Source: Henckelia pumila (Eukaryota; Streptophyta; Magnoliopsida; Lamiales; Gesneriaceae). Taken from it: a stretch of 64,000 nucleotides of DNA. Under the pieces are notes generated by a model. It saw only the letters and a list, made by a program, of their open reading frames with translations. It did no database searches and was not told the origin of the DNA. The stretch spans positions 149,372,861-149,436,860 of the forward strand of contig NC_133122.1 of assembly GCF_033568475.1 (NCBI RefSeq), written 5' to 3'. The translations under genes and the position numbers were made by a program. Shown here piece after piece: positions 21,209 through 64,000 of this stretch; position 1 is the first letter of the stretch; every line of letters begins with the position of its first letter.

Positions 21209-21380
21209 ACGGTCCTCGGAGGGGTCATTACTGCTATGCGAGCTCAGAAATCCACGCTACCGGTCTGTAAGTTTTAAGTGTTTATAGCATGATTTAATTC
21301 TTTGGATTTAAGTTAGTATTACTTTTAAACAACTTAGTTATGCATGGCGATTTACGTAAAGAAATATGTGGTGGTGCAGA

Positions 21381-22407: not shown

Positions 22408-22611
22408 GTATATCTTATCCCTAGCATTTTAATAATTTTCCTTTGGTTAAAAATTTAGTCTTTAATTTAGAATTATTGTTATTTGGGTTATTTAACTGCA
22501 TGTTAGAATAGGAAGCATGTTTTACTTGTGATTAGAATTAAAAATTTGTAGTGACTCGTTGGGAAAAAAGTTAGTAGTGGTATGAAACTGTTGGGAATTT
22601 TTAGCGTGCAG
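22408..22611 (+). other. Probable intron between gag and pro-pol
   Basis: The segment begins GTATAT and ends GTGCAG. It is 204 bp, clearly more AT-rich than the coding DNA on both sides, and contains the gag stop. Removing it joins the first base of a Gly codon (22407) to 22612 and gives the unbroken family reading from SLITG into ILVGG just before the protease. Frame arithmetic agrees with the protease frame (22614 and 22647 share phase). Confidence 0.7.
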
Positions 22612-25600: not shown

Positions 25601-25984
25601 AAGGGGGTAGTGCGTTTTGGCCGGAGAGGCAAGCTTAATCCGAGGTATATAGGGCCATTCGAGATCTTGGAGAGAGTTGGCACGTTGGCCTACCGTTTAG
25701 CTCTACCTCCAGGGCTAGCAGCAGTGCACAACGTTTTCCATGTATCCATGCTTCGGAGATATGTCTCCAACCCGTCGCATGTGTTGGATTTCGAGCCCTT
25801 GCAGTTGCCACCAGATCTAGTGTATGAGGAGAGGCCAGTGCGGATCTTGGCTAGGGAGGAGCGGAGGCTTAGGACGCGGGTCATACTGATGGTCAGAGTC
25901 CAGTGGCTGAATCACTCAGAGGAGGAAGCTACTTGGGAGACCGAGGCAGACATGAGGACTCGCTACCCGGAGTTGTTCGGGTAA
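22612..25984 (+). pseudogene. Pol of the Tekay-like element (PR-RT-RNH-INT-chromodomain), two breaks
   Basis: Domains in order: aspartic protease ([12 protein letters not shown], from about 22647); reverse transcriptase (23200-23760) with [23 protein letters not shown] and catalytic FIDD; RNase H (about 24080-24440) with YTDAS, the [11 protein letters not shown]lu, FTDHKSLK and VADALSR; integrase with zinc region (CLTCQ near 24855) and DDE blocks MDFVVGLP, SDRDPRF and TDGQSER; and a chromodomain-like tail (EERPVRIL to RYPELFG). Breaks are a TGA at 23916-23918 after the RT thumb and a single-base frameshift near 24490 between RNase H and integrase. All catalytic residues remain. The copy is recent but not autonomous as it stands. 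Confidence 0.92.
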
Positions 25985-26015
25985 GTACTTTAATTTCGAG
26001 GACGAAATTCAATTT

Positions 26016-26029
26016 AAGGGGGGGAGAAT
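26016..26029 (+). other. Polypurine tract of the Tekay-like element
   Basis: AAGGGGGGGAGAAT lies immediately before the 3' LTR (26030) and is the plus-strand primer site. Confidence 0.9.
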
Positions 26030-42807: not shown

Positions 42808-42812
42808 CATAT
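42808..42812. other. Target-site duplication CATAT (left) of the Athila-type element
   Basis: CATAT precedes the 5' LTR and recurs at 63973-63977 right after the 3' LTR. This fixes both ends of the 21,160-bp structure. Confidence 0.85.
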
Positions 42813-44125
42813 TGATGAAACTTAAAATTTGTAATTATTTATATGTTAAAAGTTCTGTTTTAAAATTAAAGTTTTATTAAAATTATGAAGTTGTATTATT
42901 TTAGTGTTATGCATTTATATTTAAATGTTTTACTAAAAATATTGTAATTTACGGTTTGCGCAGGTTTGGTAAAAATAAAATTACTCAAGCTACAGACTAT
43001 AGAGGTCATATTAAAGTAATCTCAGATCCTGTAGAATCACAAAAGAGGCATCTTTAACTTTGTAAAAGAAAAAAAAAATCCAAAAACCTCATTAAGATGA
43101 TCAAAATGATCAAACATCAAAATAAAGACAAATTTACTTTTACTATGACCAGCTTGGAGTAAAAATATAATAAATAATTTATCTTTTATCCAAAAAAGGT
43201 GAATCATATATCCAAACACATTTACACAAAATTTTCTACGTGTTCTATGTTGAGTGCAAAGGCTGAATCGGTGATTTAAGGCATCAAACATGCCAATTAA
43301 AGTTGGGCCATGATATTGAAATTCAAGGAGATCACAAGCAACCACCAACTTTACTATTTCACATTTAATGAGTCTTGGACTCTTGATCTCATTTGACCTA
43401 TAAATAGATGCGTTGTATAAGCTTTGAAGTGTGCAAAAGTGTAGAGAAATTTCTCACTTGTAAAATAAATATTGTGTGTGTAAGAATAAGAGTTTGAGTG
43501 TGCATATTTCTCCAAGTTTAAGTATGAAATTGCTTTTATAAGTATGAAATTGCTTTTATCCTTACTCTTGAATCTTATGTTCATGACAAGCTAAATCCTT
43601 TTATCTCAAGGTGAAAATGTTTCATTGTTAGTCAAGTAAGATTATATATATTTTGTATATTCTTTCCTTTTCTATTTTTATTTTGTTTTACTAATTGATC
43701 TTTATTTGTAGGTATAATTTGGATGATTTATTGTTATATATTTACATCAAATACATGGTACCTTAAATGTGGTTACCTTGATTTGTTGTCAAATATGATA
43801 CAATAAATACTGAAATAATTATATACTATAAATATATGTATCAATTTATAATAAATTCATATATATTATTTAGACAATAGCGTGACTCTACCGGTTGTTC
43901 TAAATAATATATTGTGATTTGAACTAACATTTATTTTTTCGCAACTAACATTTATTTTCTCGCATCTAACATTTACTTTTCCGCAACTAACATTTACTTT
44001 CTCGCATCTAACATAAAAAAATTTCATATATTTTATTTAAACGATAGTGTGACTCTGCCGGTTGTTCTAAATAAAATATGGTGATTTGATCTAACATTTA
44101 ATTTTATGTCAATTTATATTTATGC

Positions 44126-44180
<55 letters not shown>

Positions 44181-44524
44181 GGGTACCATGTATTAAATAT
44201 CGGTTAATCTGATATTAATATAGTGAGAACTATATTATATGATATATTTGTTTAAATATTTCATTGTTCTTTTATGTTTATTCTTATATTAGTTTATTTT
44301 ATTTATTTTTGTTAAGAAATCTTATATAAACCAACAATGAACCTTTGAAGCCTTGACAATTTTATAATTTGTGTACTTTAAATTTTATAATAATCTTTCC
44401 ATCTATAATCTATAATTTTTAAACTTAAACTTACAACATCCTCTCTGTGGATCGATCTCGTACTCACGATTATATTACTTGCAGACAACCTATACTTGGG
44501 TGAATTACAATTTAAGTAATAGCA
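42813..44524 (+). mobile_element. 5' LTR of the Athila-type element
   Basis: This 1.7-kb LTR is repeated at 62331-63972. It contains two imperfect palindromes (about 43862-43913 and 44029-44082), a run of about five 19-20 bp units with CTAACATTTA (about 43920-44012) and an (AT)n run (about 44129-44177) that is much longer here than in the 3' LTR. It ends GTAATAGCA. Substitutions and small indels between the LTRs show that the insertion is old. Confidence 0.85.
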
Positions 44525-44530
44525 AGTTTT

Positions 44531-44548
44531 TGGCGCCGTTGCCGGGGA
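44531..44548 (+). other. Primer binding site (tRNA-Asp type) of the Athila-type element
   Basis: TGGCGCCGTTGCCGGGGA-like sequence a few bases after the LTR is the primer site typical of Athila/Tat-type Ty3/gypsy elements. The last base differs here. Confidence 0.85.
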
Positions 44549-44752: not shown

Positions 44753-45880
44753 CAAGAACATGAAAAACCAAGAACACTTAGGCCCATATGAATCCAATAA
44801 GAACTAGTACACAACCTTGTTTAGTTTTTCCTCCTGATGCGTCTAATTTCAATTTTAAGCCACAAATCATTCAACTTTTACCAAATTTTCATGGCCTAGA
44901 TTCTGAAAATCCATATTTGCATTTAATGGAATTTGAAGAGGTTTGCAACACTTATAATGATCAAAATTGTAGCATGGATATTGTTCGATTAAAGCTTTTC
45001 CCTTTTTTTTAAAAGCTAAAGCTAAAACATGGTTGCAAAATTTGAGATCAAGTTCAATAAGATCATGGGAAGAAATGCAAAAACAATTTCTTAAAAAGTT
45101 TTTTCCTTTTCATAGAACAAACTCTTTTAAAAGACAAATTACAACTTTTTTCTCAAAAACAAGGGGAAATATTTTATCAATATTGGGATAGATATAAAGA
45201 GTTATTTAATACATGCCCACATCATGATTTTGAAATATGGAGGATAGTTTCTCACTTTTATAAAGTTTTAATACCTAAAGATAGGCAAATGATAGAATTC
45301 ATATGTAATGGAACTTTTGAAGATAAAAATCCAAATGAAACTATGGAATATTTGGAGTCATTAGCAGAAAATGCTCAAAATTGAGATAATATAGGCTCAA
45401 TTGAACCACCAAGTAAAACCAATAATTCAACAAATGGGGTTGGTATTTATCATCTTAAAGATGATGTAGATATTCAAGCTAACTTGCATCTTTAGCAAAA
45501 AAAATCGAGTCATTAAAAATAAAAAAGAGTGATCAATTAAAAAGTGCTCAAAAAATTGTTTGTCATATATGTGACACACATGATCATCTCACAAAAAATT
45601 GTTCAACTTTGTCTTCATTTAAAGAATGTCTCCAACAAGCCAATTATGTTAACAATTTTAAAAAACCAACATTAGATCTTTTTTCACAAACATATAATCC
45701 TGGTTGGAGAAATCATCCTAATTTTAGTTGAAGGAACGATAATAATGCAAAACTTTCACAACAACCTTTTCAAAATAATCAAATCATCAAGATTATGCTC
45801 CTTATATCCACCTTCAAGAAAACATTTTGAAGATGAAATTCATGCATACATTTAAAAGCAAGAGTCTATCAATATTCAAA
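44679..45880 (+). pseudogene. Gag of the Athila-type element (decayed)
   Basis: The start MEDNSNNQ is followed by a long (AAT)n run (44702-44752) that leaves the reading frame out of register with the rest of gag. The main body is recognisable from 44788: FHGLDSENPYLHL, MDIVRLKLFPF, KQFLKKFFPFHR and YWDRYKELFNTCPHH, which are Athila-type gag blocks. A zinc knuckle (CX2CX4HX4C, CHICDTHDHLTKNC) lies near 45560-45603. Several stops and frameshifts interrupt it, e.g. near 45010 and 45384. Confidence 0.8.
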
Positions 45881-48800
45881 ACATTCAATCAATGAATGAT
45901 TTGAAAGAAACTCTTGCAAAATTTGCATCTGCACTTAATATTCATGAAAAAGGAAAATTTCCATCTCAACCACAACCTAATTCTAAAAATCAAAATCAAG
46001 ATAAATTTGATAAAGTAAAATCTGTTATTACTCTTAGAAGTGGTAAAATTGTTAATGATCCATATAGTGATGAAAACAAAGATTAGTTAAACTCAAAGAG
46101 TAAGGATTCAACTCCTAATACTTTTGAGAAAAATGATACTTTGAGTCATAAAAATAAGGAATTTGATGATAAATTATCTGAAATAATGAGTGAGTCAAAT
46201 AAACATCTTCCTTTTCCACATGCATTAGTAAATAATAAAAAACAAAAAAATGATTCTGATATTTATGAAGTCTTTAAACAAGTAAAAATAAATATTTCAT
46301 TATTAGATGCTATTAAACAAGTACTTTCTTATGCAAAGTTTTTAAAAGATTTATGTACTGTGAAAAGACAATTGCATGTAAAGAAGAAAGCATTCTTATC
46401 TGAACAAGTAAGTTTTATAATTCAAAATAATTCTACTTTGAAATATAAAGATCCTGGTTGTCCAACAATTTCATGTATTATTGGAAAAATAAAATTAAAA
46501 AAGCTTTGTTAGATTTGGAAGCGAGTGTAAATTTACTTCCTTATTCAGTTTATGAAAAACTTAAGTTGGGAGATTTAAAACCTACATCTGTTACTCTTTT
46601 ATTAGTCGATAGGTCAATCAAAATACCTAGAGGTATTGTAGAAGATGTGTTAGTTCAATTCGATAAATTCATATATCCTGTGGATTTTATTGTCTTGAAT
46701 ACACAACCAATAGAAGTACATAATGAAATTCCAGTAATATTAGGACGTCCATTTCTCGCAACTTCAAATGATTTAATTAATTGTCGAAATTGAATAATGA
46801 AATTGTCGTTTGGAAATATGACTTTAGAACTTAATGTGTTCAATTTATGTAATCAACTAATTATTAATGAAGATGAAGATGATAATGCAATAGAAACAAT
46901 CGTGGAAGAAAATATACACCAAGAAAACTTAAATCAACAATCTGAAGTTTGTTTAGTGGAAAGTTTTGATTCAAAAAATGTTTTTAAATCAAAGTTATTT
47001 GAAGAAATTAATGAACTTGAAGAAGTAAAACAAGATGATCATCCAAAACTTGAATTAAAACTTTTACCAATAGATCTAAAATATGCTTTTCTTGGTGAAA
47101 ATCAAACATATCCTATTGTAATATCTTCTATCCTCTTATCAAAACAAGAAGAAGATTTAATAATATTACTTAAAAAACACAAAAATTTAATTGGATGGAC
47201 TTTGCAAGATATAAAAGGTATAAATCCTTTAATTTGCACACATAGAATTCACTTGAAAGAAAATGCTAAAACATATCAACAACCACAAAGAAGATTAAAT
47301 CCACACATGAAAAAAGTTGTTAAAAATGAAGTTTTAAAACTATTAGATGCCGGAATTATTTATCCAATATCGGATATTAAATAGGTAAGTCCAACACAAG
47401 TAGTACCAAAAAAATCAGGCGTCACTATTATAAAAATTGAAAAGGGGGACTTATTACAAGCTAGGATACCATCTAGTTGGCGTATGTGCATTGATTATAG
47501 AAAATTAAATGATGCAACTAAAAAAGATCACTTTTCGCTACCATTTTTAGATCAAATTTTAGAGAAAGTGGTAAGTAATTCTTATTATTGTTTTCTTGAT
47601 GGATATTCAGGGTATTATCAAATACCAATATCATTAGAAGATCAAGAAAAAACTACTTTCACTTGTCCTTTTGGAACTTTTGCATTTAAAAAAATGTCAT
47701 TTGGTTTATGTATGCTCCGGCTACTTTTCAAAGATGCATGCTAAGTATTTTTAGTGACATGATTGAAGAAGTTGTGGAATTTTTATGGATGATATAACTG
47801 TTTTTGGAAACTCATTTGAAAAATGTCTTAAAAATTTGGAAGAAGTTTTAAAAAGATGTGAAGAAAAAAATCTTGTTTTAAATTGGAAAAAATGTCACTA
47901 CATGGTTAAATCTGGAATTGTGTAGGGCATGTCATATCTGAAAATGGAATTGAAGTTGATAAAGCTAAGGTTGATGTTATTGCTAATTTACCATTACCAA
48001 ACACGATCAAAAAAATTTGATCATTTTTGGGTCATGCGAGATTTTATAAAAGATTTATAATTTTTTTTTAGCATAATATCTAAACCAATTTCAAAGCTTT
48101 TAACAAAAGATGCACAATTTGAATGGACTCAACAATGTGAAACTACTTTTAAAAAGATATTTAATATTTTAACTACATCACCTATTTTACAACCTCCTAA
48201 TTGGTCTTTACCATTTGAATTAATGTGTGATGCAAGTGATTATGTTGTAGGAGCCGTGTTAGGACAAAAAAAATAAGGTAAACCTTATGTGATCTACTAT
48301 GCTAGTAGAACCTTAAATAGTGCACAAATCAATTATTCAACAACTGAAAAAGAATTACTTTCAATAGTGTTTGCATTAGATAAATTTTGATCCTATTTAA
48401 TTGGTTCTACTACTATTGTTTATACTGATCATTTTGCCATAAAATATTTATCAAATAAACAAGATGCTAAGCTAAGATTAATACGATGAATTTTGTTGTT
48501 ACAAGAATTTGATCTTATAATAAAAGATAAAAAAGGAAAAGAAAATGTAGTAGCCGATTATTTATCAAGAATAATTTCTGAATCATCTCAAAACGAAATA
48601 CCGATAAATGAAAATTTTCGGGATGATCAACTATTTTATGCTAATACTATGCTTTGGTTTGCTAATATTGTAAATTTTCTTGTGACAAATAAAATATCTT
48701 CTCATTGGAGTTCACAAGATAAAAATAAATTCTTGAAAGAGGTAAACAAATTTTATTGAGATGATCCTTATTTGTTTTTAAGTATTGTCCTGATCAAATT

Positions 48801-49850
48801 TTTCGAAGATGCATACCCAACAATGAGGTAAGTAGTGTCATTAAATTTTGTCATTCTGAGACATGTAGAGGTCATTTTTCGTCAAAGAAAACAGCTGCAA
48901 AAATCTTTTAATGTGGATTTTATTGGCCTTATTTATTCAAAGATACGTATTCATTTTGCAAATCTTGTGAAAATTTTCAGAAAATGGGTTTAATTTCAAA
49001 ATGAAACATGATGCCTTTAAATCCAATCATGATTATTGAAATATTTGACAGTTGGGGAATAGATTTTATGGGTCCATTTCCATTATCTTTTGGATTTACT
49101 TATATTTTAGTTGATATCGATTATGTTTCAAAATGGATTGAAGCAATTGCATGTAGAACTAATGATCATAAAGTTGTGATAAATTTTTTGAAATAAAATA
49201 TTTTTAGTCGATTTGGAATACCTAGAGCTATAATCAGTGATGGAGGAAGTCATTTTATAAATAAATCATTTTCTTTGTTGTTAAGAAAATATGATATTAC
49301 ACATAAAGTTTCTACTCCATATCACCCTCAAACAAATGGTTAGGTTGAACTTGCAAATAAATAAATAAAATAAATTTTGGAAAAAACAGTCAATCCAAAT
49401 TGAAAAGATTGGTCTTTAAGATTAAGTGATGCATTATGGGCATATAGAACTGCATTTAAAACATCATTGGGGACGTCACCATGTAGATTAGTTTTTGGTA
49501 AGCATTGTCATCTACCTGTTGAAATTGAACATAAAGCTTATTGTGCAATTAAAGCATTTAATACTAATTTAGATGATGCATCTAAATTAAGAAAATTGCA
49601 ATTAAATGAACTAGAAGAATTAAGAAATGATGCATATGAAAATGTAAAGATTTATAAAGATAAAACAAAAGCCTTTCATGATAAAAATATTACGAGGAAT
49701 TCATTTGAAATTGGACAAAAAGTTTTACTGTATAATTCTCGCTTGCATTTGTTTTCAGAAAACTTAGATCGCGATGGTCCGGACCATTTATTGTTAAATT
49801 TGTCTATCCTCATGGTGCTGTTGATGTTGAAAATCCTAAAAATAATAATG
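45881..49850 (+). pseudogene. Pol of the Athila-type element, main part (decayed)
   Basis: Order: protease (LLDLEASVNLLPYSVY near 46505, with the usual active-site Gly changed to Glu), RT (47200-48060: WRMCIDYRKLNDAT, CFLDGYSGYYQI, catalytic FMDD near 47781), RNase H (48210-48570: [31 protein letters not shown]) and integrase (48800-49850: [18 protein letters not shown], the TNG block and [12 protein letters not shown]). Many in-frame stops and several frameshifts occur. The C-terminus is separated by the chromovirus insertion and resumes at 59430. Confidence 0.88.
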
Positions 49851-49855
49851 TGTTT
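49851..49855. other. Target-site duplication TGTTT (left) of the nested chromovirus
   Basis: TGTTT occurs here and at 59425-59429 on the two sides of the insert. Removing one copy plus the insert restores the continuity of the Athila integrase tail ([10 protein letters not shown] before, VNGQRLEPFLE after). Confidence 0.9.
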
Positions 49856-51912
49856 TGAAGTGACCCTGCATTAAATCACCTAATAATTGACAACTAATAG
49901 CATGCATTAAACTTAATACAGAAAAATGCTTAACAAAGTAAAACATGCGGAAACATAATCCATAATTTACATATCAGCTTAGTAAAACAAGTCCAAGATT
50001 AATAGTATAGTGATACAACCATATTAAAAAGCTTAAAGTAAACATTATACAGCTATATCGAATCCTGCTGTATAAATAACTTCTCAAGCAGTGTTTTCAT
50101 AATCGGACCGGTGATCGAACTGGTTTACTTAAAAAAATAGTCCAACCGGTCCGACCGTTTTAATCGGACGGTCGAACCGGAAAATCGTTTATATAATTTA
50201 ATATAATAAATAATATATTTTGGAATTTTAAAAACTCAAAAATTATATAAATAGACATAAAATATATATTTAACATAGTTTAAAATCTAAATAAATATGT
50301 AAATATATTTAAAATATCAATTATAGTTATAAATTATTTAAATAATAAATTATTTATTTTTTAAAAAAAACCAATAATTATTAAAAAAAATTTAAATGAA
50401 GTAGAAATTTCAAATAATAATGTAATTATATATAAAAATATTAAATCTAAGGTTTAAAAATAAAAAAATTTAAATTTTCAAAATAAAAAATTCGAAAAAC
50501 CGGTTCAACCGATTTTTTGGTTCTTGGCCGGTCCAACCGGTTCTTGACCGGTTTTGACCAATTCTGACCGGTTGGACCGGTTTTTCGGTTTTTGGGGTCG
50601 GACCGGACTAGTTCGACGACCGGTTTCCGGTCGAACCGACCGGTCCGGTCCGGTTTCGAAAACACTGTTCTCAAGTCTCCTTCTCCCTAGTACTGCCTCG
50701 AACTACCAGCTCCATCCATCCTGCGTCTTGCCCCGTGGAATAGGGTGTCCAAGATAACAACTAGGACGTGAGCGCTAACACCCAGTATATAACATGAGTA
50801 AACATATATATAAGATGCATGCAACATGATGATTGGTAAAGGGTCATCTGAAAAGTCATGCTCAGTACCAGCACCACATGAGTGCTGCCAGCGCACGGAT
50901 CAACCTTTGGGTGCAACCACACTCGTCTAGTACACCAGAGTAGCCGTCGCGGTACTCTCAGTGACAGACTATCGAGTATAGAGCTGAGCGGCTCTATAAT
51001 CAGGTATATCATAGTATAGGCTCAACGTGTATGTGCACATGATATATGAACATAGAAAACGGTAAAACATACATCATGCCACATAATAATACCAAATAAA
51101 TGCAACATATAAACATATATACTCGCTGGCAATCTCAGTCAATGTGTACGTACCTCTAGGCTAGTTCAAGTTTAGTAGGATCCTAGGTTCCAAGCCTATA
51201 TTCAAAAGTTCATCGTATTACTACACAAGTTCTATAAGCCTTAACTAAGCTAATAAGTACTCCCAAAACTTAAATAGATTCCCGGACCATACCTTCGTCC
51301 GTAGTAAGCCCTTTGGAGTCACTAGTCCCGGATGACTATAACCACACCTTGGTTATTCCAGAACCTCTATAATAACCGATAGGACCCTCAAGTATATATC
51401 TCACACTATATAACTGAAGAAGAAAACTCGGAAATTCGTAATCAGAAATGAATCTGAAGACCCCTATTTACAGGAAAATTTCCGGTCAGGTTCGAACCCT
51501 CCGAGCTCGGGTTCGGATCGTCTGATCCAACTCACTGTCTGCATGCGAGACACGTTGAGTTTGGACCATCCGATCGCCACTTCGGGCCGTCCAAAGTATC
51601 GTTAATTCGACACTTGTCAAAATCCATGGCTGAGTAATCCTGCCTGCTTGGCATAAGGAAGTTCGGGCCGTCCGATCCTTGTTCGGACCGTCTGAACGTA
51701 CCTTAACTCCGAAGTCAACATGCCCTTCTTCGGAGCCCACGACTTGCTGAGTTCGGATCGTCCGAAGTTCTCTTCGGACCGTCCGAACTGGCCAAAACTT
51801 TGGAAGCCAAATTCTTAATTCTGAAGTCCGATTGAACCTTGAAAATGGTTATTACTAACCCTTAATCATGTTTAACATATTATTATCTTAAAATGAAATC
51901 TGGGTTATTACA
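49856..51912 (-). mobile_element. 3' LTR of the nested chromovirus, split by a hAT MITE
   Basis: On the minus strand it runs from TGTAATAACCCAG to the end at 49856, where the terminal TGTAGTGAC is changed to TGAAGTGAC. It is 2057 bp long, of which 587 bp are the hAT MITE plus its duplication, leaving about 1470 bp versus 1451 bp for the other LTR. The palindromic TTCGGA-type motifs lie near 51490-51790. Confidence 0.88.
50089..50667. mobile_element. Non-autonomous hAT element (MITE) in the LTR
   Basis: Terminal inverted repeats CAGTGTTTTC and GAAAACACTG are flanked by an 8-bp duplication TTCTCAAG (50081-50088 and 50668-50675). The sister LTR has a single TTCTCAAG near 58178-58185, the empty site. 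Both ends are packed with ACCGG/CCGGT motifs, like the subterminal transposase sites of hAT elements, while the middle is AT-rich. The size is 579 bp, with no transposase. Confidence 0.9.
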
Positions 51913-52039
51913 TTCTTCCACCTTTAGATATTTCGTCCGCGAAATAAAATCTAAAGACAAATCAAGATAACAATATGAAACATCAAACCATGTTTTATTA
52001 CAACAACTGTAATTACATCTTTACATGGTAATAAAAATA

Positions 52040-55000
52040 CAAAGCAAACAACTTAGGATATTCTGCTCGCATACGACTCTCTATCTCCCAAGCTGCTTTC
52101 TCAACGCCTCGGTGCTGCCACTGTACCATCACAAGTGGTATAGTCTTGTTCCGAATAACTTTCTCCTTTCTGTCTAGGATACGGAGTGGTCATTTAACAT
52201 ACGACAGATCTGGCTCTAGCTGAAGGTCAGTAGGCTAGATAATGTGTGACTCATCAGCTATGTACTGTCGAAGTAACGCCACATGAAAAACATCATGTAT
52301 ACTAGAAATATATGGCGGTAAAGCAAAACGATATGCAACATCTTCGATCTTTTCCAGTATCTGGAAAGGCCCAATAAAACAAGATGATAACTTTCCTTTC
52401 ACACCGAATTTCATAACCTTCCTGAAAGGTGATACTCGCAGAAAAACATATTCACCAGGCTCGAACTGAAGTGGCCTACGATGAATATTAGCATAACTGA
52501 CTTGCCGATCTTGAGAAGCTTTGATCCTCTGCTTGATCAAATCTACCTTGTCTACAATCTGCTGCACCAACTCAAGACCCTCGACTTGTCGTTCTCCTAT
52601 ATCATCCCAGAATAACGGAGTACGACATCATCGACCATACAATGCCTCGAAAGGTGTCATATCAATACTAAGATGATAACTGTTATTGTAGGCAAATTCG
52701 ATCAAAGGTAACTGATCCTGCCAAGACAAACCAAAATCCATGACAGAAGAACGTAGCATATCCTCCAACGTACGAATCGTCCGTTCCGACTGCCCGTCAG
52801 TCTCCGAATGATATGCAGTACTTAAACTCAAAGTGATACCCAACGCCTGCTGAAAACTACCCCAGAAAAATGAGGTAAATCGCGGTATCTATCACTGACT
52901 ATGCTCACTGGAATTCCATGTAATCGCACTATCTCCTAGATGTATAAGCGTGCCATGCGATCATAAAAATACTCCCAGTTGTAAGAAATAAAGTGCGCTG
53001 ATTTCGTCAATTGGTCAACAACGACCTAGATAGCATCACACTGACGTGAAGTCATATGCAATTGGGTGACAAAATCCATAGTCACGTGCTCCGACTTCCA
53101 TTCGGGAATCTCAAGATTCTGCAGTAATCCACCTGGTCGTCGGTGTTCAGTCTTGACCTGTTGACAAACCAGACATTGAGAAACAAACTGATATACACTC
53201 TGCTTCATCCCCTTCCACCAGAATCTAGTTCGCAAGTCCTTATACATTTTCATACTTGCAGGATGAACTGACAATCGACTCCTGTGAGCTTGAGAAAGAA
53301 TATCATTTCTGAGCTCCGCAACATCAGGTACAACCACTCGATTCGATTAGCACAATAAACCATATGTCTGATAATGGAATCCAGATGTATTAACTCCATT
53401 GGCTAGACGTGCCAAATGCTGAGTCTTAACATCAGATATCTGAGCTTCTCTGATCCAAGAATACAATGTCGGCTCAGATAAAATAGTATACAAACGAATT
53501 CCATTTCTTCCTTTTTTGTGCTTGAGTGTAAAACTCAGTGAACAACACTCCTGAATCATATGAGATAATTCACTAGTCTGAATACAGAAAGTCTCACCTG
53601 CCGACTCAAGACATCAGCAATAAGATTAGTAGAACCTGGATTATATTTGATTTCACAATAATAATCCTTTAGGAGATCCATCCAGCGTCTCTGTCACATA
53701 TTCAACTCTGCCTGAGTGAATAAATATTTCAGACTCTTGTCATCCGTGAATATCTCAAATTTCTCGCCATAAAGATAATGCCTCCAGATCTTGATAGCAA
53801 ATACAATGGCGTCTAACTCGAGATCATGCACTGGATAATTATTCCCATGCGTCTTCAACTGTCGAGAAGCATAGGCAATAACATGTCCATGTTGTGTCAA
53901 AACACACCCTAACCCCTGACTAGAGGCATCAGTGCAGACAACATAACCTCCCGTTCCAGAAGGTAAAGCTAGCACAAGTGCGGTAGTAAGACTTCTACGC
54001 AGCTCGTAAAATGACTCCTCACAATCCGAGGACCATATGAAGGCAACATATTTCCGTGTAAGCTGAGTCAAAGTCCTGGCCAACTGTGCAAAATTCTCGA
54101 TGAACCGACGGTAATAACCCGCTAGACCCAAGAAACTTCGAATCTCAGCAACCGTTGTCGGACGAGACCAGTTCAGCACTACCTCTAACTTACTTGGATC
54201 AACAGATATTCCTTCACTAGAAATCACATGACCGAGAAACACTACCCGATCAAGCCAAAATTCGCATTTGCTTAATTTCGCATATAGCTGCTTATCTCGC
54301 AACGTCTGCAAAATAATTCTCAGATGCTGCGCATGTTAATTCTTGTCATGAGAATAAACAAGAATATCATCTATGAAGACGATGACAAATCTATCCAGAT
54401 ATTCTCGAAACACTTGATTCATCAAATTCATAAAAATTGTCGGTGCATTCGTCAAACCGAATGGCATAACCAAAAATTCATAATGCCTGTATCTGGTCCT
54501 AAAAGCAGTCGTAGAAATATATGAGTCTCGTACCTGCATCTGGTGTTATCCTGATCTCAGATTTATCTTGGAGTATACAGAAGTACCCTGTAATTGATCG
54601 AACAGATCATCAATTCGTGGAAAAGGATACTTATTATTGATGGTGACACGATTCAGCTGCTTGTAATCATTACACAATCGCATCGATCCATCCTTCTTCT
54701 TCATGAACAAAACAGGTGCTCCCCACGGAGAAACACTCGGACGAATATATCCCTTATCAAGCAGATCCTGCAACTACTGTTTCAATTTCCTCATCTCTGA
54801 CGGTGCCAGAAGATAAGGTGATCGGGATATAGGCGTCGTTCCTGGTACTAGATCAATACCAAATTCGGCTCAGTTAAAATAGTATACAAACGAATTACAT
54901 TTCTTCCTTTCTTGTGCTTGAGTGTAAAACTCAGTGAACAACACTCCTGAATCATATGAGATAATTCACTAGTCTGAAGTACAGAAAGTCTCACCTGCCA

Positions 55001-56900
55001 ACTCAAGGCATCAGCAATAAGATTAGTAGAACCTGGATTATATTTGATTTCACAATCATAATCATTCAGGAGATCCATCAAGCGTCTCTGTCGCATATTC
55101 AACTCCGCCTGAGTGAATAAATATTTCAGACTCTTGTCATCCGTGAATATCTCAAATTTCTCGCCATAAAGATAATGCCTCCAGATCTTGAGCGCAAATA
55201 CAATGGCGTCTAACTCGAGATCATGCACTGGATAATTATTCTCATGCGTATTCAACTGTCGAGAAGCATAGGCAATAACATGTCCATGCTATGTCAAAAC
55301 ACACCCTAACCCCTGACCAGAGGCATCAGTGTAGACAACATAACCTCCCTTTCCAGAAGGTAGAGCTAGCACAAGTGCAGTAGTAAAACTTCTACGCAGC
55401 TCGTGAAATGACTCCTCACAATCCAAGGACCATATGAAGGCAATATCTTTCCGTGTAAGCTGAGTAAAAGTCCTGGACAACTGTGCAAAATTCTCGATGA
55501 ACCGACGGTAATAACCCCCTAGACCCAAGAAACTTCGAATCTCAGCAACCGTTGTCGGACGAGACCAGTTCAGCACTACCTCTATCTTACTTGGATCAAC
55601 AGATATTCCTTCACTAGAAATCACATGACCGAGAAACACTACCCGATCAAGCCAAAATTCGCATTTGCTTAATTTCGCATATGGCTGCTTATCTCGCAAC
55701 GTCTGCAAAACAATTCTCAGATGCTGCGCATGTTCATTCTTGTCAAGAGAATAAACAAGAATATCATCTATGAAGACGATGATAAATCTATCCAGATATT
55801 CTCGAAACACTTGATTCATCAAATTCATAAAGACTGCCGGTGCATTCGTCAAACCGAATGAAATAACCAAAAATTCATAATGCCTGTATCTGGTCCTAAA
55901 AGCAGTCGTAGAAATATCTGAGTCTCGTACCCGCATCTGGTGGTATCCTAATCTCAGATCTATCTTGGAGTAAACAGAAGTACCCTGTAATTGATCGAAC
56001 AGATCATCAATTCGTGGCAAAGGATACTTAATATTGATGGTGACATGATTCAGCTGCTTGTAATAATTACACAATCGCATCGATCCATCCTTCTTCTTCA
56101 TGAACAAAACAGGTGCTCCCCATGGAGAAACACTCGGACGAATATATCCCTTATCAAGCAAATCCTGCAACTACTGTTTCAATTCCCTCATCTCTGACGG
56201 TGCCAGACGATAAGGTGATCGGGATATAGGCGTCGTTCCTGGTACTAGATCAATACCAAATTCAACCTCTCGAACCGGAGGAAAAACAGGAATCTCATCA
56301 GGAAACTCGCTGAAAACCGATAGCTGATCAATACCCGAACTACTCGTGGACATATCAACTGCATAAATGAGGTAGCCCTCCTTACCCGACTCTAAGACAT
56401 GACATGCCTTCAGAGCCGATAGCAGTGGAATCGGAGGTCGCGCTCCCTCACCATAGAAGTACCAGCTATCACCCTCATCCGAATGAAATTGTACCAGGCG
56501 CTGATAACAATCCACAGTAGCATGATACAAAGTCAGCATATCTATTTCCAAAATACAATCAAAATCTGCCATCACTAAAATCATCAGATTAGCCGATAAC
56601 ACATGACCCTCAAACTCTAGAAGGCAACCTATCACTAGACGCTTAGTTACTACCTCCTGCTCTAACATAGTAGATACAACTAAGTCCAGGTCTAAGATAC
56701 AAATGGTAATCTATGTCTCTTAACAAAGCGACTAGAAATAAAGGAATGCGATGCTCCAGTATCAATTAAAATAAGTGCAGGAATACCACATAACAAAAAG
56801 GTACCTGCCAACATGCGATCGCTTTCCTCAGTAGTCTGTTCCTGAGACAGAGAAAACACCTTCCTTTGAGTCTGTGGACGGTAACCAGAAGAACTCGGTG
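52040..56900 (-). pseudogene. Pol of the nested chromovirus, with an internal RT-RNase H duplication
   Basis: From right to left: protease (IDTGASHSFISS near 56740), RT ([21 protein letters not shown], catalytic FIDD), RNase H ([19 protein letters not shown]), integrase (53340-52600: CLVCQQVK, VTMDFVTQL, STAYHSETDGQSER) and a chromodomain-like tail near 52180-52050. The RT-RNase H block occurs twice in tandem (56262-54869 and 54868-53470). Stops and frameshifts lie throughout, e.g. TAG near 56170 and the break at about 53340. Confidence 0.88.
53470..56262 (-). repeat. Tandem duplication of about 1.39 kb (RT-RNase H)
   Basis: Copies 54869-56262 and 53470-54868 are collinear and differ by a few percent by eye. 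The junction near 54868 joins the sequence before the RT palm (ACCAAATTC) to the sequence after RNase H (GGCTCAG). The right copy keeps the longer frame (56170-55289). Confidence 0.85.
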
Positions 56901-57864
56901 GTGCTGGCTGCTGACGTGGAAAAGTAGAAGCCTGAGATCCAATCTGTGATCCCGATCCACTAGCAGAACCCATGCGCTGAGGACAATCTCTCCGCAGATG
57001 TCCTTGCTCACCACAAATATAACAAGCACCAGTAGCCTTCCGACACAAAGCTCAAGGATTCTTCCCACCACAGTGACTGCAAAACTCCTCCTCCTTCTTT
57101 TTCTTCCCAAAACAGAATGTACCTCATGAACCACGAGAACCATAGGAAGTAGTAGTAGAAGAAGACATAGGTCCAGATTGCACAACAGATTGAGCCCTAG
57201 GCCCAAGAGATCCACTAGGCTGTCCTGGCATCATCAACATTGCCCGTCTGTTGCTGTTCTCCACTTGACGACAGCGGTTAACCAAAGTCTCATAAGAAGT
57301 TGGATCATCAATATCTTGATTCAAGCCTTGCAAAAAGATATCATACTTTGAAGCATCATTGTCACTAATATGCGGACTGAAAGGTAGCAGATCAAGAAAT
57401 CGTTGCTGATATTGATCAATAGTCATTGATCCTTGCCTCAAAATCAGCAACTCCATAGATCGTGCCTTTCGAACTGCTGGAGGAAAATATAATTTCTGAA
57501 ACTGCTGACAGAAATCCTCCCAAGTCACCCGTCCTCCCTCCGTACGTGCCTGAGTAGCCTTGGTATCCCACCATAAGCGTGCTCGATCCTCTAGAACAAA
57601 TTCTAAAACTTCCAGTTTTTGCTCTTCAGTGCAATCGAAAGCTCTAAAAGCACTCTCGAGTTTGGACATCCAACCTCTTGCTTGTTCAGGATTCTCGCCT
57701 CCCACCAAGGGTTTCGGTCCTACTTGCATAAACTTATTAATAGATTAGCGACATCTACCCTCATGACGACGATGTCGACCCTCATGATGATGGCGATGGT
57801 GATGATGATGATGACCACCTTCCTGGCCAACACTACCATGGCTCTCATCACCTCTCCCGACCAT
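56692..57864 (-). pseudogene. Gag of the nested chromovirus (broken)
   Basis: The ATG at 57864 gives MVGRGDESHGSVGQ followed by a His-rich stretch; a stop follows near 57748. The capsid-like body (from 57729) has GWMSKLESAFRAF, RARLWWDTKA and LLILRQGSMTIDQY. The region ends with a zinc knuckle CYICGEQGHLRRDC near 57020. A stop at about 57124 separates the body from the knuckle. Confidence 0.85.
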
Positions 57865-57973
57865 ATCCTGAAAATAATTGCACATTAAAATCTCAAATGC
57901 GCAATTATTACTCAAGACTAGACTAAATCCCAAGTACTAATCCCAAAATCAAAGCATTCTCTGATACAAAAAA

Positions 57974-59424
57974 TGTAGTGACACTGACAACTAATAGCAT
58001 GTATTAAACATAATACATCAAAATGCTTAATAGAGTAAAACGTGCGGAAACATAATCCATAATTTACATATCAGCTTAGTAAAACAAGTCCAGGCTTAAT
58101 AGTATAGTGATACAACCATATTAAAAAGCTTAAAGTAAACATTATACAGCTATATCGAATCCTGCTGTATAAATAACTTCTCAAGGCTCCTGCTCCCTAG
58201 TCCTGCCTCGAACTACCAGCTCCGTCCATCCTGCGTCCTGCCCCGTGGATTAGGGTGTCCAAGATAACAACTAGGACATGAGTGCTAACGCCCAGTACAT
58301 AACATGAGTAAACATATATATAAGATGCATGCAACATGATGACTGGTAAAGGGTCATCTGAAAAGTCATGCTCAGTACCGGCGCCACATGACTGCTGCCA
58401 CCGCACGGATCAACCTCTGGGTGCAACTACACTCGTCTAGTAGACCAGAGTAGTCATCGCGGTACTCTCAGTGACAGACTATCGAGTATAGAGCTGAGCG
58501 GCTCTATAATCAGATATATCATGGTATAGGCTCAACGTGTATGTGCACATGATATATGAATATAGAAAATGATAAAACATACATCAGGCCACATAATAAT
58601 GCCAAATAAATGCAACATATAAACATGTATACTCGCTGGCAATCTTAGTCAATGTGTACGTACCTCTAGGCTAGTTCAAGTCTAGTAGGATCCTAGGTTC
58701 CAAGCCTATATTCAAAAGTTCATCGTATCACTACACAAGTTCTATAAGCCTTAACTAAGCTAATAAGTACTCCCAAAACTTAAATAGATTCTCGGACCAT
58801 ACCTTCGTCCATAGTAAGCCCATTGGAGTCGCTAGTCCCGGATGACTATAACCACACCTTGGTTATTCCAGAACCTCAATAATGACCGATAGGGCCCTCA
58901 AGTTTATATCTCACACTATATAACTGAAGAAGGAAACTCAGAAATTCGTAATCAGAAATGAATCTGAAGACCCCTATTTATAGGAAAATTTTCGGTGAGG
59001 TTCGGACCCTGCGAACTCGGGTTCTGATCGTCCGATCCAACACAATGTATGCATGCAAGACACGTCGAGTTCGGACCGTCCGATCGCCACTTCGGGCCGT
59101 CCGAAGTGTCCTAAATCCGACACTTGTCAAAATCCATGGCTGAGTAATCCTGCCTTCTTGGAATAAGAAAGTTCGGGCCGTCCGATCCTGGTTCGGACCG
59201 TCCGAACGTACCTTAACTCCAAAGTCAACATTCCCTTCTTTGGAGCCACCCGGCTTGCTGAGTTCGGATCGTCCAAAGTCCTCTTCGGACCGTCCGAACT
59301 GGCCAAAACTTTGGAAGCCAAATTCTTAATTCTGAAGTCCGATTGAACCCTGAAAATGGTTAATTACTAACCATTAATCATGTTTAACGTATTATTATCT
59401 TAAAATAAAATCTGGGTTACTACA
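57974..59424 (-). mobile_element. 5' LTR of the nested chromovirus
   Basis: On the minus strand it reads TGTAGTAACCCAG to GTCACTACA, 1451 bp, with the intact TTCTCAAG site that is filled in the other LTR. A weak Met-tRNA primer site (GTATCAGAG) lies directly beyond its end on the minus strand (about 57973-57955). The element (49856-59424, 9569 bp) lies within the integrase tail of the older Athila-type element. Confidence 0.9.
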
Positions 59425-59429
59425 TGTTT

Positions 59430-59561
59430 AAAGTTAATGGGCAAAGACTTGAACCATTTTTAGAAAATGAAATTCTTAATGATGATTTTATGCCTACGAT
59501 CCAAATTAATTGCTTATATTTTCATTTTATTTTTGCAGAATTGAGTTCACTTCCCGGTTAA
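59430..59561 (+). pseudogene. C-terminal end of Athila-type pol
   Basis: This is the continuation of the integrase tail after the chromovirus insertion (KVNGQRLEPFLENEI), ending at TAA 59559-59561. A strong plant-type 3' splice site (TTCATTTTATTTTTGCAG, about 59521-59538) lies inside it, upstream of the extra ORFs. Confidence 0.75.
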
Positions 59562-59650: not shown

Positions 59651-60202
59651 ATGGATGAAATTATCAAAAAACATGGTAAATATTTTCTTTCTGTTTCTAA
59701 AAAAGTTCTAAGAATGATTTACGAAGGAAGACGTGAAAGATTGAGGATGCTTATGCGAAAAGGAATTCTGGAGGATATTCGTCTTATAATTGAAGCCAAG
59801 GTTCGATTAGGTGGTGAAGTTCCAAAATTCTTACTTGTTCAAAATATGTCTGGAATAGGAAAAAGTACCTATGCGAAGAAAATGAGGGCCAAGAGATTAG
59901 ATGTTTGTCATAAATGTGCCAGATGGACTTGTGATAGACGATAAAGATCTTTGGGATATGTTTCCACAAATATAGAAGATAAAATTGATTTCATTAAGAA
60001 TGAGCTGAGTAAAGAATCATTAGATGATATCTCATTGACTCTTGATACACATTCTAGTGGAGATGTGCAAGGTCAACTTCTCCGTTTATGGAAACTATTC
60101 CAAGCGTAGCGTCATGGTAATGGTCTTGGGAATCTGACTAAAAAAGACCCTATTTGCCAATTTATAAGAAAATTGGATGGGAAGCCAACCTTTGACTCAT
60201 AA
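59651..60202 (+). pseudogene. Extra ORF with virus-type nucleic-acid-binding-protein features
   Basis: One frame of 183 codons runs to TAA 60200-60202, with in-frame stops at 59942 (TAA) and 60107 (TAG). It lies between pol and the LOG copy, the position of env-like ORFs in Athila elements. The N-terminal part is basic and helical (RRERLRMLMRKG). Residues about 70-97 hold a Gly-Lys-Ser-Thr-Tyr-Ala step, a Lys/Arg run and a CX2CX4C cluster (CHKC then TC). This order resembles the cysteine-rich nucleic-acid-binding proteins (often silencing suppressors) of plant betaflexiviruses such as carla-, viti- and allexiviruses. That similarity is from memory of the family pattern and is not proven. The GIGKST step is not a full Walker A. 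The second half is acidic/polar and unrecognised. Confidence 0.5.
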
Positions 60203-60258
60203 ATATTGAATCCGTTTCTGGACGTAAACCAGAGGAACACTAAAAAGGAAAAAAAAAC

Positions 60259-60857
60259 ATGGCAGGATCTTCTTCAAAAAAATTGAAAAATATTTGTGTC
60301 TTTTGTGGTTATAGTACTGGAAAAAATGAAATATTTGTAGATGCAGCAATTAATATTGGAAAAAAGTTAGCATAGAGAAAAATTCACTTGGTATATGGAG
60401 GAGGCAATATTGGGTTAATGTGATCTATTTCAACAGCAGCTCATATTGGAGGTAGTTAGGTTTTGGGTATTATTCCTACAGCTTTAGCTGAAGGAAATAT
60501 TACAGGTGTTACGGTTTGGGAAGAGTTGAAAGTTTCATCAATGTACGAGAGAATAACTAAAATGATAGAAAATTTTGATGCTTTTATTCCCTTACCTGGT
60601 GGTTTTGGTACTTTAGAAGAAATTTTTCATGTTGTTTTTTGGGCACAACTTAATATCCATATTAAACCCATTGCTTGTTGAATATCAATAACTATTATGA
60701 TGGTTTGTTGACTTTTTTTGAAGTGGCTGTGGAACAAAATTTCATTTCAGAAAATTCACGAAGGATGCTCATCTCTGCTTCGAATGAAGACCAATTAATT
60801 GATGATCTCGAAGCTTTTGTTCATCAACCTGATTTGGCTATAACAAAGACCAATTGA
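60259..60857 (+). pseudogene. LOG-like: Retrotransposon-borne LONELY GUY (LOG) cytokinin phosphoribohydrolase
   Basis: Intact LOG enzymes cut cytokinin nucleoside 5'-monophosphates to active free-base cytokinins in the cytosol and nucleus. This copy starts MAGSSSKKLK and spans about 199 codons, the normal LOG size, without introns, whereas plant LOG genes usually have several. Family blocks are ICVFCG (N-terminus), LVYGGGNIGLM, VLGIIPTAL, AFIPLPGGFGTLEE (containing the LOG signature PGGxGTxxE, about 60595-60621), FWAQLNIH and NNYYDGLL. Breaks are TAG 60373-60375, TGA 60421-60423, TAG 60457-60459 and a single-base frameshift near 60675. It starts 57 bp after the preceding ORF and lies well inside the Athila LTRs. 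It is divergent from canonical LOGs in the middle (VSSMYERITKMIENFD). Confidence 0.85.
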
Positions 60858-62330
60858 TCTCAACCAACCAATAAGAAAAAGAAACTGGATCATTGATTCA
60901 ACATGTCGCGAAATGGTTTGTGTTTGTTTCTCATCTTCAATAAATCCCAGGTGATATATCTTTCATCATTTACTCTTTATTCGTATTTTTTAAAAAAAAA
61001 ATTAAAAACAATGTCATATTCAGGTTTGGGGGAGGGTTTATTTTTAAAAAATACAAATTTTAAATTTTTTTAAAAAATATTGCTATAATAATATTTATTT
61101 TTCTTTTTCAATGGCAGAGTAAGGAGTCAAAAACTCCTGAGATGCATTAGTTTGTATTTATCGTATTATCACAATAGATTAGATTTTAATATTCCGTATA
61201 TATTAAAATTGCAAACTACTAAGAAAATGAAGTATTTTTGTATATTTCTTTATTTATACTTTTTTTTTTATCAAATTAAAATAAATATATAATTGATGGG
61301 ATATAAGTTATAAATAATATATAATTGTGTGTTTTCAAATAACATATTTTCTAAAAATTTTATGAGTATATAGTTAAAATGATATTGATTGAATGAATAA
61401 TAACATGTATAATTGAAGAAATTAATTTGTAAAAGAGCAATATATACTCACATAAATTTTGTGAGTGAGAGGTGAGAATTGAGAAAACAACTTATAAGAT
61501 TTTATTGATTATTAAGAAATGGTTGATTACTAGATTAAACTCATTTTGAAAAAAAATAAAAAAAATATATGCAAATAAATTTGGCTACAAAGTTGTATGA
61601 AGTATGATCGTAATGATAAGTATGATTATCATTACTATAATTATCAATGTAATAGTTTTACCTCGTAAAAAAAATAAACAAATAAATAAATAAACTTTGA
61701 AAAAAAAATTTATATTTTCAAAGTTTATTGGAGATATTTGGTTATGTAAAAAAAAATTTTCAGCCAAGTGCAAAAAAAAAAAAAAAGAAGAAGAAGAGAA
61801 AAACAAACAAAAAAACAAAAATGAGTTTATTCTTTGTAAATTATCCTATCTTATTTTCAATATTAGTTTATTTGATTGTCTGTTTTACATATTAGTCATT
61901 CTCAATGAGTGTATATTTTTTTTCCAACTCCATGAGTGAAAAACATCTATATATGAAATATCATAACCCGAAAGAATATGAAGTTGAGACTTTTACATTA
62001 ATATTCCTGATGATATACATGTTATGAAAATGATTTCTATTATCATTTTAATTATATTATTCTCAAAGTTTTTAGAAAATATTTATATACAAAAAATTAT
62101 ATATATTTAATATTTTGATATTTTGTGAAATATATATGTATAACTCATGCAATTATATATTAATATATTAGTTGATAACAAGATTTATAAATAAACATAT
62201 GATCACCTTACCAGTGTGTTTTAAAATTTCAAATTTTGCAATTTAGAATATATATAATAAGGAATAAAAATCTAACTTGTGATTTTATGATATTTTATTA
62301 CTAAGGGACTAGTAATAATCCGGTTTGGGG
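60858..62330 (+). other. Non-coding 3' part of the Athila-type element with polypurine tracts
   Basis: This is AT-rich DNA between the LOG copy and the 3' LTR. A first purine run, AGGTTTGGGGGAGGG, is near 61022, and the LTR-adjacent one, GGTTTGGGG, ends at 62330. Having two tracts fits the secondary-PPT habit of this lineage. Frames near 61585-61939 are low-complexity and not credible genes. Confidence 0.6.
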
Positions 62331-63972
62331 TGTAATGAAATTTAAAATTTTTAATTATTTATATGTTAAAAGTTGTGTTTTAAAATTAAAGTTTCATTAA
62401 AATTATGAAGTTGTATTATTTTAGTGTTATGTGTTTATATTTAAATGTTTTACTAAAAATGTTGTAATTTACGGTTTGCGCAAGTTTGGTAAAAATAAAA
62501 TTACTCAAGCTACAGAGGTCATATTGGAGTAATCTTAGATCCTGTAGAATCAAAATACAGGCATCTTCAACTTTGTAGAAGATAAGAAATTCCAAAAACC
62601 TCATTAAGATGATCAAAATGATCAAACATCAAAATGGAGACAAATTTATTTTTACTATGACCAGCTTGGAGTAAAATATCATAAATAATTCACCTTTTAT
62701 CCAAAAAGGTGAATCATATGTCAAAACACATCTACACAAAATTTTCTACGTGTTCTATTTTGAGTGCAAAGGCTGAATAGGTGATTTAAGGCATCAAACA
62801 TGCCAATTAAAGTTGGGACATGGTATTGACATTCAAGGAGACAAGCAACCACCAACTTTACTATTTCACTTTTAATGAGTCTTGGACTCTTGCTCTCATT
62901 TGACCTATAAATAAATGTGTTGTATAAGCTTTGAAGTGTGCAAAAGTGTAGAAAAATTTCTCACTTATAAAATAAATATTGTGTGTGTTAGAATAAGAGT
63001 TTGAGTGTGCATATTTCTCCAAGTTTAAGTATGAAATTTCTTTTATCCTTACTCTTGAATCTTATGTTCATGACAAGCTAAATCCTTTTATGTCAAGGTG
63101 AAAAGGTTTCATTGTTGGTCAAGTAATATTGTTTATATTTTGTATATTCTTCCCTTTAATATTTTTATTTTGTTTTACTAATTGATCTTTATTTGTAGGT
63201 ATAATTTGGATGATTTATTGTTATTTATTTACATCAAATACATGGTACCTTAAATGTGGTTATCTTGATTTGTTGTCTAATATGATACAATAAATACTAC
63301 AATAATTATATACTATAAATATATGTATCAATTTATAATAAAATCATATATATTATTTAGACAATTGCGTGGCTCTGCCGATTGTTCTAAATAATATATT
63401 GAAATTTGAACTAAAATTTACTTTTCGGCAACTAACATTTACTTTCTCGTATCTAACATTTACTTTTTCGCAACTAACATTTTCTTTCTCGCATCTAACA
63501 TAAAAAAAGTCATATATTTTATTTAAACGATGGCGTGGCTCTGCCGGTTGTTCTAAATGAAATATGATGATTTGATCTAACATTTAATTTTATGTCAATT
63601 AATATTTATGCATTTATATATATATTATGGGTACCATGTATTAAATATTTGTTAATCTGATATTATTATAGTGAAAACTATATTATATGATATATTTATT
63701 TAAACATTTCATAGTTATTTTATGTTTATTCTTATATTAGTTTATTTTATTTATTTTTGTTAAGCAATCTTATATAAACCAACAATGAATCTTTGAAGCC
63801 TTGACAATTTTATAATTTATGTACTTTAAATTTTATAATAATCTTTCCATCTATAATCTATAATTGTTAAACTTAAACTTACAAAATCCTTTCTGTGGAT
63901 CGATCTCGTACTCACGAGTATATTACTTGCAGACAACCTACACTTCGGTGAATTACAATTTAAGTAGTAGCA
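62331..63972 (+). mobile_element. 3' LTR of the Athila-type element
   Basis: It is collinear with 42813-44524, from TGTAATGAAA to GTAGTAGCA. It has the same palindromes (about 63350-63400 and 63505-63560) and the same CTAACATTT tandem units (about 63410-63500). The AT microsatellite is short here. It is followed by CATAT (63973-63977), the target duplication. The last 23 bases of the window belong to the interrupted LARD-like DNA. Confidence 0.87.
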
Positions 63973-64000
63973 CATATAAATGCATCTACAAGTATAAATT

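What the first reader, a model, noticed from the sequence alone, without database searches (positions are those of the whole stretch)
60259..60857. A cytokinin-activating LOG gene carried inside an Athila-type retrotransposon
The LOG signature PGGxGTxxE and the other family blocks are present in an intronless, full-length but decayed copy. It sits between pol and the 3' polypurine tract of an element whose LTRs and CATAT target duplications are both identified. The gene therefore moved as retroelement cargo. Its stop and frameshift density is similar to that of pol, so it may have been intact when the element inserted. A mobile element that raises free cytokinin would be a new strategy, since dividing cells would give more chances for germline transposition.
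Basis: partly seen in the sequence, partly recalled or inferred. Interest (0 to 1): 0.9.

Follow-up and report, generated by a model that had tools for sequence, protein, structure and literature searches.

The report
Jumping gene carrying plant hormone enzyme
A family of plant jumping genes carries, in many copies, an enzyme gene that activates a growth hormone, next to a gene resembling a plant-virus protein; in this genome the enzyme copies look selected to stay intact, which hints that the jumping gene gains from them.

Summary
A decayed LOG frame (60259-60896, slightly longer than reported) lies between pol and the 3' LTR of a Ty3/gypsy, Athila-like element with CATAT target duplications. 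It is not a one-off. The host genome (884.7 Mb) gave 150 scored LOG matches of 406 candidates (best first), 143 without a stop. All 49 distinct LOG places that I hold have a CRP-like gene just upstream. LOG variants shared between copies have pN/pS 0.21 against 0.61 for singletons; pooled dN/dS is 0.25 (codon bootstrap 0.14-0.47). Related LOGs occur in other plants and, in a sample, form one clade against two Arabidopsis LOGs.

LOG in Citrus and Populus gypsy elements is already in print, so the cargo itself is known. New, as far as my searches reach, are the adjacent viral-type gene, the selection test, a LOG-less derivative (two copies seen) and exchange of the CRP module. That the element gains by raising cytokinin is plausible and untested.

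The parts
42808..42812 (.). target site duplication CATAT, left
42813..44524 (+). 5' LTR (1712 nt)
44531..44548 (+). primer-binding-site-like TGGCGCCGTTGCCGGGGA
   Evidence: position; that this motif is typical of Athila/Tat elements is recalled
45061..45384 (+). gag fragment, PF03732 4.4e-8
46449..46793 (+). possible protease fragment, PF13650 0.087 (below cut-off)
47385..47744 (+). reverse transcriptase fragment, PF00078 3.4e-10
48061..48276 (+). RNase H fragment, PF17919 2.5e-14
49005..49196 (+). integrase fragment, PF00665 5.7e-4 (20.5 bits, below cut-off 32.6)
49404..49855 (+). further part of pol up to the nested insertion (called integrase end in my scripts from its place); no Pfam family above cut-off, matches the same part of sister copies
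49856..59424 (-). nested Ty3 element (own LTRs, TSD TGTTT at 49851-49855 and 59425-59429); not part of the LOG element
59425..59561 (+). end of pol frame
   Evidence: reading as pol end by eye
59651..60202 (+). CRP/NABP-like accessory gene, 183 codons plus stop, two premature stops; Carla_C4 3.1e-5 on its open piece
60203..60258 (+). CRP-LOG spacer, 56 nt here; 168-200 nt with TATAAAA in the other 42 measured copies
60259..60896 (+). LOG gene, decayed (four premature stops, one frameshift)
62322..62330 (+). polypurine-tract-like GGTTTGGGG before the 3' LTR
   Evidence: by eye
62331..63972 (+). 3' LTR (1642 nt)
63973..63977 (.). target site duplication CATAT, right

Best explanation
This is a dead copy, roughly 2-4 My old, of a large LTR retrotransposon family (Ty3/gypsy, Athila-like) whose usual gene set in this genome is gag-pol, then a viral-type cysteine-rich nucleic-acid-binding protein (CRP), then a LOG enzyme, then the 3' LTR. 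Shown: the anatomy, the CRP-LOG order in all 49 LOG places held, many open LOG frames in this genome, relatives in other plants, and purifying selection on LOG. Inferred: LOG is made from the element's RNA or from an internal TATA-bearing spacer and frees active cytokinin in cells where the element is expressed; this keeps cells dividing or meristematic and gives more chances of inheritable transposition. CRP, by analogy with its viral relatives, binds nucleic acid and dampens RNA silencing or host transcription. My odds by step: anatomy 0.97; LOG selected for its protein 0.9; LOG works as a cytokinin-activating enzyme 0.7; CRP acts against silencing or as a regulator 0.45; benefit through cell proliferation 0.35.
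For: Borders and gene order. LOG in the own genome: 150 scored of 375 candidates by PF03641, 146 of 150 with no stop in the domain; 150 of 406 by protein, 143 of 150 without a stop (both lists are best-first and favour intact copies). CRP 5' of LOG on the same strand in 50 of 50 loci, 49 distinct places. Of the 150 best CRP places 117 have a listed LOG on the same strand, coordinate offset 599-752, none reversed; of the 150 LOG places, 107 have a listed CRP. Selection: 38 intact LOG copies, pooled dN/dS 0.247; shared variants 10 N/13 S, singletons 42 N/19 S; bootstrap 0.14-0.47; in the long loci LOG 0.175, integrase-side piece 0.155. Other plants: 400 LOG relatives at E <= 1e-10 among 417 candidates (120 listed); 24 of these 120 plus the window form one clade against two Arabidopsis LOGs, 96/90. 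R98 kept in 112 of 120, E121 in 116 of 120. Neutral simulation to 66% identity left 9 of 1000 runs stop-free. CRP: Carla_C4 in 20 of 20, Viral_NABP in 18 of 20 at E <= 0.01; 991 relatives.
Against: Two copies without LOG, on different chromosomes, share one deletion (L052, L056), so LOG seems not strictly needed in cis. CRP selection within this genome is not significant (pooled 0.60, bootstrap 0.33-1.33). The RT-side piece of the same copies gave 0.65, so these yardsticks are noisy. The copies compared were picked by LOG or CRP score and then filtered for intact frames. PGGxGTxxE is exact in only 89 of 120 listed relatives, and the lysine after R98 of classical LOGs is L, M or I in 113 of 120. 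The CRP model is weak and its fold matches are not significant. No expression, enzyme or hormone data.
Confidence: 0.6

Rival explanations
1. LOG keeps a LOG fold but works mainly as something other than a cytokinin activator: a phosphoribohydrolase on other nucleotides, or a nuclear partner protein through its basic C-terminal tail, which in many relatives ends in LxLxL, a repressor-recruiting (EAR-like) pattern by recall.
For: 63 of 68 full-length listed relatives have a basic patch near the C-terminus and 54 of 68 end in LxLxL; K99 of classical LOGs is replaced in 113 of 120.
Against: The R98 and E121 positions are kept in 112 and 116 of 120; the window's own lineage lacks LxLxL (tails).
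Confidence: 0.25
2. LOG is a neutral passenger, captured once and copied along.
For: At least two LOG-less copies exist that share one deletion.
Against: dN/dS 0.25, with shared variants at 0.21; open frames at 55-82% identity to the window LOG in other plants, against 9 of 1000 stop-free runs under neutrality at 66% identity and 87 of 1000 at 80%.
Confidence: 0.06
3. A separate retroposed LOG inserted into this one old element.
For: Continuous, apparently intronless LOG with an A-rich stretch just upstream.
Against: Same position 3' of CRP in 49 of 49 distinct places held.
Confidence: 0.01
4. The CRP-like gene is not related to viral CRPs; a shared basic stretch plus Cys cluster gives the Pfam match.
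For: Foldseek matches not significant (best E 0.57); Cys spacing Cx2Cx4Cx3C in 110 of 126 differs from the viral spacing as I recall it; in the window piece Viral_NABP stays below cut-off.
Against: Two viral families match above cut-off in P0123, one over 86 residues; of the four top fold matches three are plant-virus proteins that I place near the Betaflexiviridae by recall (the third by its name), though weak.
Confidence: 0.25

Closest known systems
Ty3/gypsy elements with a YgdH (LOG) domain in Citrus and Populus (Steinbauerova et al. 2011, as cited in PMC9289625)
   Same: LOG-family domain carried by plant gypsy-type LTR elements; my Populus hits may be the same elements.
   Different: Section 12 of PMC9289625 does not mention an adjacent CRP gene, selection or counts of intact copies; the 2011 paper is not held, so I cannot say what it reports.
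Orchid Ty3/gypsy elements with an AlkB m6A-demethylase domain (PMC9289625)
   Same: A gypsy-type element family that retained an extra enzyme gene; that domain is also known from flexiviruses (passages).
   Different: Different enzyme, different hosts.
Carlavirus-type CRP/NABP (for example chrysanthemum virus B p12)
   Same: Pfam Carla_C4 and Viral_NABP match; basic stretch before a Cys cluster.
   Different: Encoded in an LTR retroelement, about 183 aa, other Cys spacing (recalled for the viruses).
Plant LOG enzymes (2a33, 1ydh)
   Same: Fold family and active-site positions.
   Different: One continuous frame here (host genes have introns, recalled), a basic tail, K99 replaced.

Membership tests
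Ty3/gypsy LTR retrotransposon | LTR pair, TSD, gag-PR-RT-RH-INT order | tested here: met
   (PR weak and integrase below Pfam cut-off in the decayed window copy)
Athila lineage | RT groups with Athila references | not tested
   no reference RT set in hand; Athila rests on anatomy and a recalled PBS motif
Athila lineage | extra frame(s) between integrase and 3' LTR | tested here: met
LOG (LONELY GUY) | PF03641 domain above cut-off | tested here: met
   67.2 bits against 27; the 73-aa piece is below the NCBIfam cut-offs of TIGR00730 and the LOG equivalog
LOG (LONELY GUY) | PGGxGTxxE and the R98/E121 positions | tested here: met
   window PGGFGTLEE; 44 of 47 own-genome rows; R98 112 and E121 116 of 120 relatives; exact motif 89 of 120. 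Catalytic roles are recalled
LOG (LONELY GUY) | phosphoribohydrolase activity on cytokinin riboside monophosphates | not testable with these tools
   needs protein assay
carlavirus-type CRP/NABP | Pfam Carla_C4 / Viral_NABP above gathering score | tested here: met
   window piece: Carla_C4 24.3 against 20.9, Viral_NABP 14.6 against 23 not met; P0123 23.2/20.9 and 27.1/23
carlavirus-type CRP/NABP | viral fold | tested here: inconclusive
   model pLDDT 71, pTM 0.33; best Foldseek E 0.57
carlavirus-type CRP/NABP | zinc-finger Cys spacing as in the viruses | not tested
   110 of 126 have Cx2Cx4Cx3C; viral spacing only recalled
carlavirus-type CRP/NABP | gene of an RNA virus genome | tested here: not met
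   lies in an LTR element
published YgdH gypsy elements of Citrus/Populus | same element lineage | not testable with these tools
   their sequences are not held

The most novel reading that the evidence does not exclude
A plant retrotransposon lineage carries a two-gene host-manipulation module, a virus-type silencing suppressor or regulator plus a cytokinin-activating enzyme, kept by selection on the element and reshuffled between subfamilies, so that it makes its host cells both permissive and dividing.
Probability: 0.35. Interest if true: 0.93.

Novelty: new variant of a known kind. Interest (0 to 1): 0.76.

Why it matters
Mobile elements are usually thought to alter host development by where they insert. 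A family that keeps a hormone-activating gene under selection, beside a virus-type protein, would be a direct molecular handle on whether a plant retrotransposon manipulates cell fate for its own spread. The host holds LOG-bearing copies and at least two LOG-less ones side by side, so their success can be compared in one genome.

Tried and rejected
Viral contig scans with the CRP and LOG alignments found no relative. Structure of CRP: the 20-row model was poor, the 126-row model still weak, the viral fold search not significant. I rejected one-off retroposition and neutral passenger (see rivals). I wanted a census by the integrase-side piece (to count copies without CRP or LOG) and a count of LOG-less copies by their junction pattern; both requests stayed unanswered because the machine was busy. 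So how common LOG-less copies are is unknown: of the 33 best CRP places without a listed LOG I fetched six; in two LOG is missing (L052, L056), in four a LOG match is present, of which two are split over frames (L053, L054), one is lengthened (L057) and one is full-length and ungapped (L055). A tree with only two plant host LOGs cannot prove a single capture. Literature searches (listings seen) on LOG with Athila or gypsy, YgdH, extra ORFs, carlavirus with retrotransposon, Carla_C4 and PF01623/PF05515 showed no report of the CRP-LOG pair in the library held; the key 2011 paper is not held.

Full report
What is there. The window copy is a Ty3/gypsy element with LTRs at 42813-44524 and 62331-63972 and CATAT duplications on both sides. 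Pieces of gag, RT, RNase H and integrase follow in order; protease is weak and the integrase piece lies below its cut-off. A second Ty3 element on the minus strand, 49856-59424, split pol near its end. After the end of pol come two accessory frames: a CRP-like gene at 59651-60202 with two premature stops, and LOG at 60259-60896 with four premature stops and a frameshift. The LTRs differ by K2P 0.061; with recalled rates of 1.3e-8 and 7e-9 per site and year that is 2.35-4.36 My.

LOG is real. The open piece hits PF03641 at 2.1e-18 and the Arabidopsis structures 2a33 and 1ydh at 4e-18 and 4.6e-15. In NCBIfam it stays below the cut-offs of TIGR00730 and of the LOG equivalog, as a 73-residue piece may. 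The best relative in the protein collection is 82% identical.

It is family-wide. The host genome G000 (884,658,702 bases, 133 contigs) holds the window at C3:149372861-149436860. By PF03641, 150 of 375 candidates were scored; 146 of 150 have no stop inside the domain. By the window's LOG, 150 of 406 were scored; 143 of 150 have none, and the window itself has three. These lists take the best scores first and so favour intact copies. I hold 50 loci with LOG from these lists, L001-L050; L010 repeats L011 and L009 is the window copy, which leaves 49 places. In 50 of 50 loci the CRP-like gene lies 5' of LOG on the same strand. Of the 20 long loci (L011-L030), 19 show the integrase-side piece, 18 the piece before RT and 18 an LTR match (some are cut by the fetched ends). 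In L017 the pol frame is open to base 4527, followed by open frames for CRP and LOG. Starting from CRP instead, 150 of 496 candidates were scored; 117 of these 150 have a listed LOG on the same strand, none reversed, and 107 of the 150 LOG places have a listed CRP. Being absent from a capped list does not mean that the gene is missing.

Selection. Of 47 ungapped LOG rows (window and duplicate left out) 38 are intact; of 43 ungapped CRP rows 34; 27 loci have both intact. For LOG the pooled dN/dS is 0.247; variants shared by copies are 10 N and 13 S (pN/pS 0.214), singletons 42 N and 19 S (0.614). Singletons mostly arise after insertion, so the contrast is what selection between transpositions predicts. 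Bootstrap over codons: 0.14-0.47. In the long loci LOG is 0.175 (17 intact of 20) and the integrase-side piece 0.155 (13 of 15); the RT-side piece is 0.652 (12 of 13) with few synonymous changes, so these yardsticks are noisy. CRP is 0.600 with bootstrap 0.33-1.33, not different from 1 within this genome; between the window copy and intact copies it is 0.36, LOG 0.58-0.75 (three copies compared). The more distant LOG of L028 differs from L017 by 12 synonymous and 7 nonsynonymous changes.

Other plants. The LOG search gave 400 proteins at E <= 1e-10 among 417 candidates; 120 were listed. Named sources are Diplodiscus, Primulina, Xanthoceras, two Populus and Reevesia. One Primulina record, P0114, begins with an RT/RNase H-like stretch and continues into LOG (my reading). 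In a tree of 29 rows, 24 of the 120 relatives and the window LOG form a clade against Arabidopsis At2g37210 and At5g11950 (96/90); the window groups with P0002, P0003, P0015 and P0009 of Primulina (100/96). Only two plant host LOGs were in the tree, so a single capture is likely, not proven. Positions R98 and E121 are kept in 112 and 116 of 120; the lysine after R98 is replaced by L, M or I in 113 of 120. PGGxGTxxE is exact in 89 of 120, and in 52 of 68 of full length. The C-terminal tail is basic in 63 of 68 and ends in LxLxL in 54 of 68; the window's lineage has the basic part only.

The CRP-like gene. The window piece matches Carla_C4 at 3.1e-5, above cut-off, and Viral_NABP at 0.032, below it. 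In 20 aligned members Carla_C4 matches all and Viral_NABP 18 at E <= 0.01. A profile search found 991 relatives among 7371 candidates (120 listed), the named ones plants: Populus, Xanthoceras, Rhamnella, Acer. LOG protein P0005 and CRP protein P0148 both have a longest contig of 8723 nt, probably the same contig; I could not fetch it. From passages of PMC12172455: viral CRPs act as RNA silencing suppressors, and p12 of chrysanthemum virus B acts as a transcription factor that induces hyperplasia. The fold evidence is inconclusive.

Dynamics. L052 and L056, on two chromosomes, share a loss of 822 nt relative to L017 that takes LOG away and by the alignment leaves its last few bases, with 92-98% identity on both sides. 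This looks like a deletion rather than an empty ancestral site, and its sharing suggests that LOG-less elements also moved; their outer flanks were not checked. In L028 the CRP gene and spacer are only 47-72% identical to L017 while the integrase side is 91-97% and LOG 96-98%: the CRP module has been exchanged. L025, L043 and L044 carry the same CRP type; L025 is also divergent in pol. The spacer before LOG holds TATAAAA in 42 of 43 measured copies, the window being the exception; the other CRP type has TATAAATGCAT at a similar place (by eye). An internal promoter for LOG is possible.

How it works, and novelty. The least that the data force is that the element lineage is selected to keep a LOG protein. 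The simplest reading is local cytokinin release. LOG domains in gypsy elements of Citrus and Populus are in print (section 12 of PMC9289625, which cites Steinbauerova et al. 2011, not held). The pairing with a viral-type CRP, the selection test, the LOG-less derivative and the exchange of the CRP module were not found in the searches named under Tried and rejected. I therefore call it a new variant of a known kind.

Noticed in passing
window 49856-59424: Nested minus-strand Ty3 element with TSD TGTTT; its left LTR is about 580 bases longer than the right, and a stretch of about 1.4 kb with RT/RNase H parts is duplicated in tandem (53464-53882 against 54860-55279, 96%).
   Followed up: partly
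window about 17710-27568: Another Ty3-like element on the plus strand with long open frames and repeated arms 98-100% identical over the 300-nt pieces listed, so probably a young insertion.
   Followed up: no
window 12684-16306: Two long open frames that look by eye like a patatin-type lipase gene (SDP1-like, recalled); not tested.
   Followed up: no
L052, L056: Two LOG-less copies on different chromosomes that share one 822-nt loss; the size of this group could not be counted.
   Followed up: partly
L025, L028, L043, L044: A second CRP type with its own spacer; in L028 it sits in an otherwise near-identical element, which points to module exchange.
   Followed up: partly
proteins (e.g. P0016, P0004): Basic C-terminal tail ending in LxLxL in 54 of 68 full-length element LOGs, an EAR-like pattern by recall.
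   Followed up: partly
window 30619-30792: 87-nt tandem duplication, 94% identical.
   Followed up: no
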